Of a stretch of DNA of 37,137 bases, positions 11,845-37,095 are shown in pieces. The stretch covers positions 1-37,137 of the IMG/VR virus record IMGVR_UViG_3300034374_000150; one strand, 5' to 3'. Both the position numbers and the translations under genes were made by a program. Source of the DNA: a virus. A model generated the notes under the pieces. That model had not been told where the DNA came from, ran no database searches, and saw only the letters and a list, made by a program, of their open reading frames with translations. The stretch's first letter is position 1; each line of letters opens with the position of its first letter.

Positions 11845-12019
11845 AAACTTAGAGGAGACACTTGTTGCTACATCTAAGGACGATCTATCCGAAAAGATCA
11901 GGTGGTATCTAAACAGATATCACCCCCTTGGATATGACACTAGAGTTATACGCATGACACATGATCCTAACACTGGTAGGTTCACTGCTGTTATGTCACG
12001 TTGGGATTCTTGCGATTAG
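11831..12019 (+). CDS. Small hypothetical protein (62 aa)
   Basis: It starts at ATG 11831 or, two codons later, ATG 11837. It contains ATSKDDLSEKIRWYLNRYHP followed by LGYDTRVIRMTHDPNTGRFT, which looks like a helix followed by a beta hairpin. The compact alpha/beta pattern suggests a small folded domain, but I cannot name it. Confidence 0.6.
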   Translation: MTMPRNLEETLVATSKDDLSEKIRWYLNRYHPLGYDTRVIRMTHDPNTGRFTAVMSRWDSCD

Positions 12020-12030
12020 GAGAAAAATAC

Positions 12031-12087
12031 ATGGACATTATTATTGCAGTAATTGGTATGATTATTTTGTTGGCGTTTGGGCTATGA
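12031..12087 (+). CDS. 18-codon hydrophobic leader peptide before the recombinase
   Basis: ATG 12031 follows an excellent ribosome site (AGGAGAAAAATAC). The 18-residue peptide MDIIIAVIGMIILLAFGL is a pure membrane helix. Its TGA (12085-12087) overlaps the ATG of the tyrosine recombinase at 12084 (ATGA). The recombinase has no good ribosome site of its own, so it is probably translated by coupling to this peptide. It could equally be a genuine membrane micro-protein. Too short for ordinary gene finders. Confidence 0.55.
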   Translation: MDIIIAVIGMIILLAFGL

Positions 12088-13016
12088 CTACTTTCAACGA
12101 CATGGTAAGTGATTACTATTCTTCCTATGAATACAATGACTTGAGAGATGAAACTAAAGCAGATTATAAATATCTAATCGGCCAGGTTTTAGATACAAAA
12201 GTTGAAGGAAGAATCTTTCGTAGCCTAGATGTCAAACAATTGACAACTAAGATGTGCAAACTTGCATACAACACATGGTGCGATAGAGGTATCCACTTCG
12301 CTAACAAGACAATGGCTATTGCGCGAGTCGTGTACAATCATGGCTTGCGTATGGAGATGGTCAACAACAACCCATTCAATGCTGTTCGCAGGCGTAAGCC
12401 TAAGAGTCGAACCACCCTGTGGGATAAAGAACACATCGTCCAACTACTGGACACAGCATATAGCGACTTTAACACACGCAACCTTGGGCTGATAGCACAG
12501 ATGGCATATGAATGGTGTCAGCGTGTGGGTGACATGCGCCTACTCAAATGGTCTAGCATAGACTTTGAGCATAGGCGTGTGCATATCCTGCAATCCAAGC
12601 GTAGGGCAGAGGTTTATTTGCCTATCTCTGACGATCTTATGGATATGCTGGAACAGCAGCACGAAGACTTCGGCTTTCAGGAGTACGTTGCCCCCCGTCC
12701 TTATCCTATTCAGGGTAAGTATGAACCCTATACTATATACAAAATGTCCAAGCATGGACGCACACTTATTCGTAGCGCTGGGTTGCCTGACACTCTCCGA
12801 CTGTCGGACTTACGGCGCACAGGTACTACAGAAATGGTCCAAGCAGGTGTTGGAATTGGACAGATAATGTCGGTTACAGGACATGCTAACCCACAATCTG
12901 TAAAGCCTTACATAAAAAATACATTCGATGCTGCAAATTATGCATTGACAAAACGAACTGCGCATGGTAAAAGCACATTAGATGCCGCAAAAGATGAGGA
13001 TACATACAATGTATAA
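12084..13016 (+). CDS. int: Tyrosine recombinase / integrase
   Basis: A 310-residue site-specific recombinase from ATG 12084; the frame is open upstream, but this start overlaps the leader-peptide stop. The N-terminal 105 residues are the arm/core-binding SAM-like domain. The catalytic domain has Arg147 in EWCQRVGDMRLLKW, Lys172 in the beta hairpin, LSDLRRTGTTEM with Arg244, GHANPQS with His267, and nucleophile Tyr276 in VKPYIKN. The usual His of the HxxR box is Ser241, a substitution tolerated in some family members. It lies in the replication operon just before the primase rather than next to a visible attachment site. Integration of a temperate phage or resolution of genome multimers are both possible. 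Confidence 0.9.
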   Translation: MTTFNDMVSDYYSSYEYNDLRDETKADYKYLIGQVLDTKVEGRIFRSLDVKQLTTKMCKLAYNTWCDRGIHFANKTMAIARVVYNHGLRMEMVNNNPFNAVRRRKPKSRTTLWDKEHIVQLLDTAYSDFNTRNLGLIAQMAYEWCQRVGDMRLLKWSSIDFEHRRVHILQSKRRAEVYLPISDDLMDMLEQQHEDFGFQEYVAPRPYPIQGKYEPYTIYKMSKHGRTLIRSAGLPDTLRLSDLRRTGTTEMVQAGVGIGQIMSVTGHANPQSVKPYIKNTFDAANYALTKRTAHGKSTLDAAKDEDTYNV

Positions 13017-34277: not shown

Positions 34278-34820
34278 TTACCTCCAGCGTGGCCCAAAGA
34301 ACCAAGCGACAAGTGATTTGCGTGTGCCGGAGGTTACTGGCAGAACCCTGTGTCTAAGGTAGCTTGGGAAGACCAAAACAGTGCCTTTTGATTTGAAGTC
34401 GGCTGTGTTGCTAACCTCGTCAAACTCAAAGTCACCGCCCTCGTAATCGGATGGATCACTGAGTTGGACCGTGATCGACAGTTTCCTATCGGAGTTGGTC
34501 TGGCCGTTCCAGTTGATATCGTGATGCCAGTCGTAGTGACCGCCCTCGTTAGCGTGATACTCCGTGAACTGAACCTCAGCGTGATTTTCAACATTCACAC
34601 CGAAAGCATTAATGTTCGCTACCTTGGTATATTCCCAAAGCAAGTCTCTCACCCACTGGTCCGGCACCCATCGAACGATGCTACTGCGGACCTCTTTTTT
34701 GGTGTCGTTCGATGAAAACACTTTAGCCGCTTGAGGCGGTTGGGCTTCAGCTGCCTTCGTAATGTCATCTATCTGCTGCTGAGTAAGCGCAGACGACCAG
34801 AGTTGATAAAGATCACGCAT
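34278..34820 (-). CDS. 2-oxoglutarate/Fe(II)-dependent dioxygenase (PKHD/P4H type)
   Basis: A 180-residue enzyme with the double-stranded beta-helix signature. YHANEGGHYDWHHDINW contains His99 and Asp101 (H-x-D). QLSDPSDYEGGDFEFDE is the conserved G-G-x-F/L region. FPSYLRHRVLPVTSGTRKSL gives the distal His157 and Arg167, which bind iron and 2-oxoglutarate. The ending (SLVAWFFGP) matches prolyl-4-hydroxylase-like families. All metal and cosubstrate residues are present, so it should be active, hydroxylating a protein residue (Pro is typical) or another substrate. It is placed among tail-fibre and virion genes, 3 bases after its neighbour, suggesting a virion or host-surface target (inference). 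Confidence 0.88.
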   Translation of the reverse strand: MRDLYQLWSSALTQQQIDDITKAAEAQPPQAAKVFSSNDTKKEVRSSIVRWVPDQWVRDLLWEYTKVANINAFGVNVENHAEVQFTEYHANEGGHYDWHHDINWNGQTNSDRKLSITVQLSDPSDYEGGDFEFDEVSNTADFKSKGTVLVFPSYLRHRVLPVTSGTRKSLVAWFFGPRWR

Positions 34821-34823
34821 GGT

Positions 34824-35129
34824 CTAATCTCCAGTGATAAGCACGATGTCTTTATCATGTTTAGCTTGAGCAATCAAAATGTCGCGGTTGAGGTCGTTGG
34901 ATTTGACCATCTCGTTGCGGAAACTTTCTACGGCTGCGCCTGTCTGACGCGATTGTTGCGCGTTCTCGATCATCAACATCGGCATCCAAGCCATAGAGCA
35001 GCCCCAGTCGTCAACCTCATCACCAGTGTTTGGGTCAGTGCCTCTGATTTGTATGAACCAAGCACAATCAAATTTCTTGCATGACTCAAAGCCATTCAAA
35101 GGGCAGTTATCCTTGACTTCTAGTTTCAT
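34824..35129 (-). CDS. Conserved Cys-containing phage protein (101 aa)
   Basis: From ATG 35129, sharing a base with the TGA of the gene upstream. Sequence blocks are KLEVKDNCPLNGFESCKKFD, CAWFIQIRGTDPNTGDEVDD, WGCSMAWMPMLMIENAQQSR and QTGAAVESFRNEMVK. Four cysteines (CPL, SCKK, DCAW, GCSM) in the first half suggest a zinc or Fe-S site. The protein is conserved in many marine phages, but I know of no demonstrated function. It lies between the tail-fibre assembly-like gene and the oxygenase. Confidence 0.7.
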   Translation of the reverse strand: MKLEVKDNCPLNGFESCKKFDCAWFIQIRGTDPNTGDEVDDWGCSMAWMPMLMIENAQQSRQTGAAVESFRNEMVKSNDLNRDILIAQAKHDKDIVLITGD

Positions 35130-35434
35130 CAAGCCTCACTCTCAGCTTCTTTAGCCGCTTGCTCGGCTGCAATTTCTGCTTGCTCGGCGTCATAGGCCGC
35201 TTGCCATGTGGCATCGACATTCGACCACCAACTCAATGTGGTGACGTCCTCAACAAGTTCATTGGCTGTGATTGTCCGCGTGGACCTGACGCCTTTCTCA
35301 AGGTCGGCTGATCCATCTACAGCTGCTTGCACGGCGAGGATGTCGTCTGGTAGCCAGCTGAGTGTTAGGTCAAGGTAGCCCACGCCATCCTTAGAGATAA
35401 AGCCGTCATCCGCGATTATTGTGTATCTTGCCAT
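35129..35434 (-). CDS. Small protein downstream of the tail fibre (101 aa)
   Basis: A clear AGGAG site precedes ATG 35434. The N-terminus MARYTIIADDGFISKDGVGY is followed by DLTLSWLPDDILAVQAAV, and the C-terminus is a helical Ala/Glu tail (EQAEIAAEQAAKEAESE). I recall proteins with the DDGFxxKDGVGY start directly after tail-fibre genes in phages; a tail-fibre assembly or chaperone-like role is an inference from this position. Confidence 0.65.
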   Translation of the reverse strand: MARYTIIADDGFISKDGVGYLDLTLSWLPDDILAVQAAVDGSADLEKGVRSTRTITANELVEDVTTLSWWSNVDATWQAAYDAEQAEIAAEQAAKEAESEA

Positions 35435-35445
35435 GATTTACTCCT

Positions 35446-37095
35446 TTAGTTTCTCGATGCGAAAATGACATCGACATATTGTACGTTAATTGAAGCTGTT
35501 CCAGACATTGTGTGGTTGTGAGAATCGCCGCTACCAGCGGAACCACTCGATCCCTGCATATTAAGAAGCAATGTTGAGCCTACACCTTGATTCAGATTAG
35601 CGCCGCCAGTGCCACCCCCTGTATGACGAAGCTGCGCTTTGTAAGATCCTGCACCGTGAGTGTGGGATGCAAGCTGTGCGGTTGAGAGTGTTGTACTGCC
35701 TGTTGAGCCTGATAGTGATGGCGTTCCAAGAGCAGTTGTAAAACCACTCGAACCGCCGCTACCAACAGTGCCAGATACAACCCTCAATGCTTTGTCGTTG
35801 TGGGTTGTTATCTTTGTCCATCCTGTTGGCGCAGATGTCTGTTGGAACAGCATGATTGTACCCGAAGGAAAGTCTGGTCCTTGGGGTCCAGTCGGGCCGG
35901 TCGGACCTGTAGGTCCAGTAGGACCAGCAGCACCATCAGAACCACTAGGGCCAGTCGGTCCAGTCGGTCCAGTTGGCCCTGTAGGACCAACCAACGCCGC
36001 ATTAGCTATTGTCGCTTTGCGAACAGCACCACCCGAAACGTCATAAAAAGCAATTGTATCGGTAGAAACAGGAGTAGCTGTGGTCAAACCATTAACATCA
36101 AGATTAACAGTAACAGTACCAGATGTGCCACCTCCAGAAATGCCAGTTCCAGCAGTAACACCATCAATATCACCTGTACCACCTGTTGCAACGGCGGTTA
36201 CTCGTCCATAAGCGTCAAGTGTAATCGTATCAATCTTAGTGTTGTTAGAAGTTGAACCGTAAGTTCCAGCACCAGCACCAGCTGTTGCTAGTGAAAGGGT
36301 ACCACTGCTTGTAATGGTGCCACCAGTTAGTCCTGTTCCTGTAGCAACACTTGTCACAGTTCCGGTTGTGGTTGAGAAACCAGCATCGTTGTTGAAACCA
36401 GAGATTGCAATATTGGCTTTAGTCAACTTGTGTTGTGAACCGTCAGCACTATCTACAACTACAAAATAATCACCATCAGTATTTGTTGTGGATGTTGCGA
36501 GTTCATTTAAATCAAGGTTAAGTGTATGTGCAACGCCTTCACCAGATGTAGCACCAGTAGAGTCAATGCCAGTTCCACCTGTAATAGTGCCTACATAGTT
36601 TCCTGTTGTATCCGTACCAAGAGCAACAGAGTTTGCCGTTACCCCACTTGCTGTGGTAGCAGTGGTAGCATTACCTGAAAGCGTTGCTGTAATAGTGCCA
36701 GCAGAAAAATTGCCACTTGCATCACGGGCAACAATTGTGCTTCCCGTGTTTGCAGAGGTGGCATTTGATGTGACTGTGAATGTTGCGCCTTCAGCACTGG
36801 CTGAACCAGATAGACCTACACCGCTTACTGCACCAGTAGCGACATAGTTACCTGATGTTTTTGTTCCAAGTGTTACTGCGTCATTATTAATCTTTGCCGT
36901 AGTGACAGCACTGTCAGCAATACCGCCTGTGCCGATTTGTGGACCTTCACCTGTTGTGCCATCGTGACTGTGACCTGTTGTTGCGTTAAACGCCGCCTGA
37001 ATTGCATCAAACTCGCCATCAAGGTCAGAGGCGTTGATTACGTTCCCGTCTGCAATGTTATTGGCGGTATCATTACGAGTGTAACCTGTACCCAT
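35446..37095 (-). CDS. Tail fibre with collagen-like repeats and collar-type tip
   Basis: A 549-residue protein. The N-terminus [20 protein letters not shown] followed by a GHSHDGT loop (about residues 40-50) is typical of marine phage fibres. Residues 60-365 are Thr/Gly/Ala/Ser-rich repetitive beta structure, ending in VGPTGPTG. Residues 370-407 are collagen-like Gly-Pro-Thr triplets. The tip (residues 413-549) has [29 protein letters not shown] and [12 protein letters not shown], the HxH metal-binding pattern of phage collar/receptor-binding domains. It should bind the host surface. AGGAGAT precedes the ATG. Confidence 0.85.

What the first reader, a model, noticed from the sequence alone, without database searches (positions are those of the whole stretch)
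34278..34820. Active-site-complete 2OG-Fe(II) dioxygenase among virion genes
His99, Asp101, His157 and Arg167 are all present. The gene is not in the metabolic early unit but between tail-fibre-associated genes and a large structural protein, so its likely target is a virion protein (for example the Gly-Pro-Thr collagen-like fibre, since P4H-type enzymes hydroxylate proline) or a host envelope component.
Basis: inference. Interest (0 to 1): 0.58.

Follow-up and report, generated by a model that had tools for sequence, protein, structure and literature searches.

The report
Phage enzyme paired with collagen-like fibre
This marine phage carries, right behind the gene for its collagen-like tail fibre, an intact prolyl-hydroxylase-like enzyme, and in related viruses the enzyme and Gly-Pro-Thr collagen fibres mostly occur together, which suggests, but does not prove, that the phage chemically modifies its own fibre the way animals modify collagen.

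Summary
In detail: the minus-strand ORF 34278-34820 (180 aa) is a 2OG-Fe(II) oxygenase (Pfam PF13640, 61 bits) with H99, D101, H157 and R167. It is third in line after a collagen-like tail fibre (35446-37095), in a tightly spaced late operon. The predicted fold (pLDDT 94.7) is closest to peptidyl-prolyl hydroxylases, including the chlorella-virus collagen hydroxylase.

Viral relatives at least 45% identical with 4 kb upstream: 14 of 14 lie near a Gly-Pro collagen fibre; below 45%: 12 of 26. Among fibres found by a conserved segment just before the collagen, 25 of 31 with GPTGPT carry the enzyme, against 2 of 14 without. Sister phages swap collagen tip and enzyme together between conserved flanks.

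Against: GPT collagens across viruses in general mostly lack it; 15 of 18 named phages with more distant homologues have no collagen; bacterial chromosomal copies stand alone; a phylogeny-corrected test had too few pairs.

Best reading: a fibre-dedicated prolyl hydroxylase acting on X-position proline of Gly-Pro-Thr. Not shown biochemically. It is not a classical collagen P4H by residue (Arg, not Lys) or site. New variant of a known kind.

The parts
34278..34820 (-). 2OG-Fe(II) dioxygenase, 180 aa, proposed fibre prolyl hydroxylase
   Evidence: PF13640 61.3 bits; phrog_61; AF2 model pLDDT 94.7; prolyl hydroxylase fold
34524..34526 (-). H99 codon, Fe(II) ligand 1 (role by family knowledge)
   Evidence: invariant in 44 of 44
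34518..34520 (-). D101 codon, Fe(II) ligand 2 (role by family knowledge)
34350..34352 (-). H157 codon, Fe(II) ligand 3 (role by family knowledge)
34320..34322 (-). R167 codon, expected 2OG C5-carboxylate ligand (H157+10)
35446..37095 (-). tail fibre, 549 aa, with collagen-like segment; proposed substrate
   Evidence: PF01391 27.9 bits (cut-off 27.2); PHROG tail and tail-fibre families
35872..35988 (-). collagen-like run of 13 Gly-X-Y triplets, 11 with Pro in X, 8 of them GPT
35968..36129 (-). conserved adaptor segment before the collagen (...[27 protein letters not shown])
   Evidence: alignment of 16 fibres
35129..35434 (-). 101-aa gene of the fibre cassette, unknown function
   Evidence: homologue in same order in L016
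34824..35132 (-). 102-aa Cys-containing gene of the fibre cassette, unknown function
   Evidence: homologues in L016 and in the prophage remnant L404
34051..34305 (-). 84-aa gene, conserved right flank of the exchanged cassette
   Evidence: phrog_12220 and phrog_462; 73% in L082, 70% in L426, 72% in L432
31133..34048 (-). 971-aa large protein of the structural region, conserved right flank
   Evidence: 95% (first 40 aa) in L082, 80-86% in L420, L425, L426

Best explanation
The gene encodes an active-site-complete 2OG/Fe(II)/O2-dependent peptidyl hydroxylase, made late with the tail fibre. It most likely hydroxylates prolines in the X position of Gly-Pro-Thr repeats of the fibre chains before they trimerise, stabilising or tuning the collagen-like rod and/or adding a hydroxyl for further decoration. 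Shown: intact catalytic residues, prolyl-hydroxylase-like fold, operon position, clade-wide linkage to GP-collagen fibres, and exchange of collagen tip and enzyme together. Inferred: catalysis, the residue modified, timing before trimerisation, and the effect on the virion.
For: Active site complete and invariant in 44 of 44. The AF2 model's best structural matches are peptidyl-prolyl hydroxylases: P. putida P4H bound to EF-Tu Z 19.1, PHD2 18.3, PBCV-1 viral collagen prolyl hydroxylase 17.8, algal P4H with (Ser-Pro)5 17.5 (Foldseek agrees). Operon: fibre, 101 aa, 102 aa, enzyme, with gaps or overlaps of at most 11 bases. Viral enzyme representatives (95% dereplicated, at least 4 kb upstream): at least 45% identity, 14 of 14 near GP collagen; 40-45%, 5 of 12; below 40%, 7 of 14. 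Fibre-anchored set not chosen by the enzyme: 5 of 5 GP-collagen fibres have the enzyme against 2 of 20 without, Fisher 4e-4. Lys-collagen set chosen by GQKGQKG: median GPT count 25 with enzyme (16 loci), 0 without (25 loci), p 2.5e-7. Adaptor-anchored set: GPTGPT 25 of 31 with enzyme against 2 of 14, p 4e-5. Sister phages: L082 shares fibre residues 1-315 (90%) and the right flank (73-95%) but lacks both collagen and enzyme; L420 and L426 lack both, L425 and L432 have both. Enzyme-linked fibres have 13 unrelated C-terminal and 7 N-terminal types, so the collagen is the shared part.
Against: Collagen alone does not predict the enzyme: 7 of 39 informative GPT-pattern loci have it, and only 3 of 50 of the remaining GPT contigs carry any PF13640. 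15 of 18 named phages with homologues (33-44% identical) have no collagen anywhere. Close homologues (51-64% over full length) sit alone on alphaproteobacterial chromosomes without detectable collagen genes. L315 has the enzyme but its Lys-rich collagen has no X-position proline. 5 of 48 collagen-free fibre contigs carry some PF13640 oxygenase. The tree-corrected pair test had only 3 supported pairs (2 agree, 0 oppose, 1 no difference): not significant. Classical collagen P4H uses Lys where this has Arg and acts on Y-position proline (recalled).
Confidence: 0.55

Rival explanations
1. The enzyme modifies the collagen-like fibre, but on another residue: Lys (lysyl-hydroxylase-like, a handle for glycosylation, as in mimivirus) or Thr of GPT.
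For: Arg at H+10 is recalled as typical of lysyl hydroxylases; LH3 is among the structural matches, Z 15.5; many linked collagens are rich in Lys at Y (GxKGQKGE); L315 has Lys but no X-proline; Thr is the commonest Y residue in the linked collagens.
Against: The window's own collagen run and many linked ones (L007, L113, L097) have no Lys; Lys-collagens without GPT mostly lack the enzyme; prolyl hydroxylases rank above LH3.
Confidence: 0.15
2. It hydroxylates a host or other virion protein (for example EF-Tu, as the P. putida enzyme does, or an envelope component); the fibre link is cassette hitch-hiking.
For: Best structural match is the EF-Tu prolyl hydroxylase; stand-alone chromosomal copies exist; distant homologues sit near non-collagen tail genes or uvsW; the distal fibre region moves as a cassette.
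Against: Does not explain why GPT content predicts the enzyme, 14 of 14 in the close clade, or recurrence with unrelated fibre N and C termini.
Confidence: 0.2
3. Small-molecule or metabolic role (auxiliary metabolic gene, iron-uptake PiuC-like), unrelated to virion proteins.
For: PHROG files the family under auxiliary metabolic genes; the closest PDB sequences are PKHD/PiuC.
Against: Late fibre operon; far below NCBIfam's PKHD equivalog cut-offs (62 against 143 bits); association with fibre composition.
Confidence: 0.08

Closest known systems
PBCV-1 viral collagen prolyl hydroxylase vCPH (PDB 5c5t)
   Same: Viral 2OG prolyl hydroxylase fold, similar size, Z 17.8 over 163 residues
   Different: 23% identity; a eukaryotic algal virus; recalled to use Lys for 2OG; here Arg, and the enzyme is linked to a phage tail fibre with X-position proline
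Pseudomonas putida prolyl hydroxylase with EF-Tu (PDB 4iw3, 4j25)
   Same: Top structural match, Z 19.1, bacterial peptidyl-prolyl hydroxylase
   Different: 19% identity; solved with EF-Tu as partner; no fibre link known to me
PKHD-type hydroxylases PiuC / YbiX / Sbal_3634
   Same: Closest PDB sequences (E 1e-12 with the profile), same ligand pattern in the alignment
   Different: Scores far below the curated PKHD equivalog cut-offs; longer proteins; iron-uptake context (by name)
Mimivirus collagen lysyl hydroxylase/glycosyltransferase and Bacillus anthracis P4H (seen only as cited or described in PMC8968730)
   Same: Microbial or viral enzymes modifying collagen-like proteins; the Bacillus enzyme is described there as hydroxylating both X and Y prolines
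   Different: Not tailed phages; the mimivirus enzyme acts on Lys and adds a sugar
Phage 2OG oxygenases of PHROG 61 (cyanophages, pelagiphages)
   Same: Same family; often near tail-fibre genes
   Different: 15 of the 18 named phages examined have no collagen-like protein

Membership tests
2OG-Fe(II) oxygenase superfamily (PF13640) | Curated Pfam score | tested here: met
   61.3 bits, cut-off 27; 46 of 46 relatives match at E 0.001 or better
2OG-Fe(II) oxygenase superfamily (PF13640) | HxD...H Fe ligands and a basic 2OG ligand | tested here: met
   H99, D101, H157, R167 invariant in 44 of 44
2OG-Fe(II) oxygenase superfamily (PF13640) | Double-stranded beta-helix fold | tested here: met
   AF2 model pLDDT 94.7; 743 of 999 aligned chains have Z 8 or more, best 19.1
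Collagen prolyl 4-hydroxylase (C-P4H type) | Lys as 2OG C5-carboxylate ligand (recalled) | tested here: not met
   Arg167, invariant; that C-P4H has Lys comes from memory, not from a call
Collagen prolyl 4-hydroxylase (C-P4H type) | Substrate proline in Y (X-Pro-Gly) | tested here: not met
   In the linked collagens proline is in X; Y-proline fraction 0.00-0.15, mostly 0, in enzyme-positive loci of the three sets. This tests the neighbouring fibre, not the enzyme's real substrate
Collagen prolyl 4-hydroxylase (C-P4H type) | Formation of 4-hydroxyproline | not testable with these tools
   needs MS or an enzyme assay
PKHD-type hydroxylase (PiuC/YbiX) | NCBIfam equivalog cut-off | tested here: not met
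   62.3 of 143 bits; other PKHD models 28-37 of 180-399 bits
Prolyl-hydroxylase-like fold group (PHD2, P. putida P4H, vCPH) | Structural similarity over the whole domain | tested here: met
   Z 17-19 over 163-173 of 180 residues; a shared fold shows no function
Collagen-like protein (PF01391), for the neighbouring fibre | Curated Pfam score | tested here: met
   27.9 bits, cut-off 27.2, a narrow pass; 13-triplet run

The most novel reading that the evidence does not exclude
A lineage of tailed phages carries its own collagen-maturation system: a dedicated Arg-type 2OG hydroxylase that modifies X-position proline in Gly-Pro-Thr tail fibres and is gained and lost together with the collagen tip as one exchangeable cassette, independently of fibre base and receptor-binding domain. 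This would make hydroxyproline collagen a phage virion component.
Probability: 0.42. Interest if true: 0.75.

Novelty: new variant of a known kind. Interest (0 to 1): 0.57.

Why it matters
A 2012 paper on prophage collagens states that bacteria and viruses lack the prolyl hydroxylase for collagen (PMC3368898, passage read), and a 2022 paper says how viruses use prolyl 4-hydroxylase 'remains cryptic' (PMC9301287, passage read). If the pairing is functional, phages modify collagen after translation, which would give a concrete job to one branch of the very common phage '2OG oxygenases' filed as auxiliary metabolic genes, explain how a Pro-in-X, Thr-in-Y collagen rod is stabilised or decorated, and offer a compact hydroxylase for recombinant collagen. 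Cultured phages with the pair exist (S-CAM9, S-PRM1, S-8S56), so it is testable now.

Tried and rejected
Classical collagen P4H: not filed as such (Arg for Lys; proline in X). PKHD/PiuC: closest by sequence but far below the equivalog cut-offs. General rule 'phage collagen implies the enzyme': rejected (one search set G: 7 of 39; 3 of 50). General rule 'the enzyme implies collagen' for the whole PHROG family: rejected (3 of 18 with collagen). Host role as origin: in the tree the five chromosomal copies form one clade nested beside the window's copy inside the phage clade (97% SH-aLRT, quick tree), which fits phage-to-host transfer better, but the root is not inferred. Lys-only substrate: rejected as a general reading because many linked collagens lack Lys.

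A phylogeny-corrected test on the fibre N-terminal tree was tried and lacked power. The scan for more sister phages with an alignment added two loci (L434, L435) that I did not examine. The GPTGPT motif used was chosen. The adaptor query A5 was built only from fibres linked to the enzyme, so only comparisons inside that set count. In one search enzyme-positive loci were admitted with less downstream sequence than negatives (L111, 935 bases), a bias towards association; removes it for the enzyme-anchored set. In one search the two 'no GP, enzyme' representatives are L105/L107 (one after dereplication) and L142, whose collagen lies in the next ORF. That P3H1, PHD2 and lysyl hydroxylases have Arg, and vCPH and C-P4H Lys, is recalled. 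Absence of a fold family is not evidence. No paper on phage fibre hydroxylation was found in searches of the open-licence library; most subscription papers are not held.

Full report
What is there. The ORF at 34278-34820 is on the minus strand, 180 aa, ATG start. It matches PF13640 with 61.3 bits (cut-off 27) and PHROG 61. H99, D101, H157 and R167 are in place and invariant in 44 aligned relatives, together with R45, Y88, Y96, R112-K113 and the Y-x-G-G motif. The gene belongs to a tightly packed minus-strand series: fibre 35446-37095, 101 aa, 102 aa, enzyme, 84 aa, 971 aa, with gaps or overlaps of at most 11 bases from fibre to enzyme. The fibre carries a 13-triplet collagen run, 11 with Pro in X, 8 GPT (PF01391 27.9 bits, cut-off 27.2). 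Polymerase, helicase, RNR and MazG lie on the plus strand. The record is a 37137-base IMG/VR virus contig.

What the protein looks like. A 44-sequence alignment gave an AlphaFold2 model with mean pLDDT 94.7. Its best structural matches are peptidyl-prolyl hydroxylases: P. putida P4H with EF-Tu (Z 19.1), PHD2 (18.3), PBCV-1 viral collagen prolyl hydroxylase (17.8), algal P4H with a Ser-Pro peptide (17.5); PiuC 16.1, OGFOD1 15.8 and LH3 15.5 follow (Foldseek). By sequence the PDB's closest are PKHD hydroxylases (1e-12), then algal P4H (6e-7), an entry named prolyl 4-hydroxylase that is vCPH (3e-6; title) and prolyl 3-hydroxylase 1 (0.003). It falls far below the PKHD equivalog cut-offs. A fold shows no function; it does make a peptidyl substrate plausible.

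Co-occurrence, enzyme side. One search kept 80 of 199 relatives in viral contigs. With the window they make 55 representatives at 95% identity: 33 near a GP-rich collagen ORF, 2 near another Gly-X-Y protein, 4 with none despite long flanks, 16 undecided. Without regard to outcome, requiring 4 kb upstream, 25 of 34 have GP collagen, 2 other Gly-X-Y, 7 none (window not counted). By identity to the window, now with six representatives of named phages: at least 45%, 14 of 14; 40-45%, 5 of 12; below 40%, 7 of 14. In 30 of the 32 collagen neighbours listed there the fibre is upstream, from overlapping to 4 kb away. Of 18 named phage genomes with homologues, 3 (S-CAM9, S-PRM1, S-8S56) have a collagen-like protein, about 1 kb from the enzyme in each case; 15 have none anywhere.

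Co-occurrence, fibre side. (a) Loci fetched by the fibre's N-terminal 122 aa (80 loci): after dereplication 25 informative; 5 of 5 GP-collagen fibres have the enzyme, 2 of 20 others do (Fisher 4e-4); one of these two, L142, has its collagen in the next ORF. Six further GP-collagen fibres without the enzyme (L089, L090, L091, L108, L114, L118) were not informative because the contig ends within about 1 kb. With a broader test 5 of 48 collagen-free fibre contigs carry some PF13640 protein. (b) Loci fetched by the Lys-collagen pattern GQKGQKG: 41 informative, 16 with the enzyme; median GPT count 25 with and 0 without (p 2.5e-7); exceptions are L315 (no X-proline) and L344 (3 GPT). (c) Loci fetched by the adaptor before the collagen: 45 dereplicated of 53 informative of 80; GP collagen 25 of 35 against 2 of 10 (p 0.008); GPTGPT 25 of 31 against 2 of 14 (p 4e-5, motif chosen after seeing data). 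With a stricter demand of 3 kb downstream the GP comparison weakens to 18 of 28 against 2 of 9 (p 0.052). Of the ten GP fibres without a nearby enzyme, two contigs have a clear PF13640 gene elsewhere and a third a weak one. (d) Loci fetched by a GPT DNA pattern over all viruses: only 7 of 39 informative have the enzyme, and 3 of 50 of the rest have any PF13640. So the rule holds inside a lineage of fibres, not for all phage collagens.

A natural swap. L082 shares fibre residues 1-315 (90%), the 84-aa gene (73%) and the start of the 971-aa protein (95%) with the window, yet between these flanks lacks both collagen and enzyme. L420 and L426 (and its near-copy L428) also have the flanks and lack both; L425 and L432 have the right flank and both. 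Across 33 enzyme-linked fibres the parts after the collagen fall into 13 unrelated groups and, for 24, the parts before it into 7. The collagen is what they share. On the fibre N-terminal tree collagen and enzyme each change 7 times, but supported independent pairs are only 3 (2 agree, 0 oppose, 1 no difference), too few for significance.

Bacterial copies. Genome contigs gave 8 loci. L405, L407, L408 and L409 (alphaproteobacterial, L405 being Candidatus Puniceispirillum) and L406 (a deltaproteobacterial MAG) show the enzyme among cellular genes. Four of these five genomes have no PF01391 hit; that of L406 has one on another contig. L404, a SAR116 single-cell genome, keeps a decayed prophage piece with fibre C terminus, the 102-aa gene and a broken enzyme, in the window's order. 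In the quick tree the five chromosomal copies are one clade beside the window's inside the phage clade. They show that the enzyme can exist without collagen.

How it most likely works. Made late with the fibre, the enzyme would use Fe(II), 2OG and O2 to hydroxylate fibre chains before trimerisation, most likely X-position prolines of Gly-Pro-Thr. That step, and any effect on stability, decoration or host range, is inference. Rivals: another residue of the same fibre (Lys or Thr); a host or other virion protein with hitch-hiking; a metabolic role.

Literature. Passages of PMC3368898 state that bacteria and viruses lack the collagen prolyl hydroxylase. PMC9301287 reports a P4H gene among abundant Baltic viral auxiliary genes, mentions collagen in tail fibres and calls its use by viruses cryptic (passage), so the idea is hinted at in print. 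PMC8968730 (passages) describes B. anthracis P4H acting on X and Y prolines and cites the mimivirus enzyme. PMC7029224 (passages) mentions collagen repeats and a 2OG protein separately. Searches found no report of the linkage shown here; the library is partial.

Verdict. Observation confirmed; interpretation partly supported and sharpened. New variant of a known kind (virus-encoded collagen-modifying 2OG hydroxylase), confidence 0.55.

Noticed in passing
L298:5791-6381, L293:2260-2883, L310:4209-4826, L354:5044-5706: More distant 2OG oxygenases lie beside very Lys-rich, nearly Pro-free collagens (L298, L310) or mixed ones (L293, L354); possibly a separate lysyl-hydroxylase-like lineage.
   Followed up: no
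L404:9300-10534: SAR116 single-cell genome AG-893-M18 holds a decayed prophage piece behind a his operon: fibre C terminus, 102-aa gene and broken oxygenase in the window's order, pointing to SAR116 as host of this phage type.
   Followed up: partly
L405, L406, L407, L408, L409: Stand-alone chromosomal copies of the enzyme in marine alphaproteobacteria and a deltaproteobacterial MAG (the copy in L407 is split), probably taken from phage.
   Followed up: partly
window 11961-13016: Integrase (phrog_1) next to the replication module: the phage may be temperate; no tRNA in the window.
   Followed up: no
L402 (HTVC008M), L401 (Sf-CH11), L443 (S-RSM4), L445 (P-RSM4): Cyanophages and a pelagiphage carry clusters of two to five 2OG oxygenases near tail genes, in HTVC008M and Sf-CH11 with a tryptophan halogenase, hinting at wider chemical modification of tail proteins.
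   Followed up: no
window 35968-36129 and 15 related fibres: A conserved segment (about DLIPVYDVSAxAWxKxTVANxAL) precedes the collagen in many otherwise unrelated phage fibres, perhaps a trimer-nucleating cap.
   Followed up: partly
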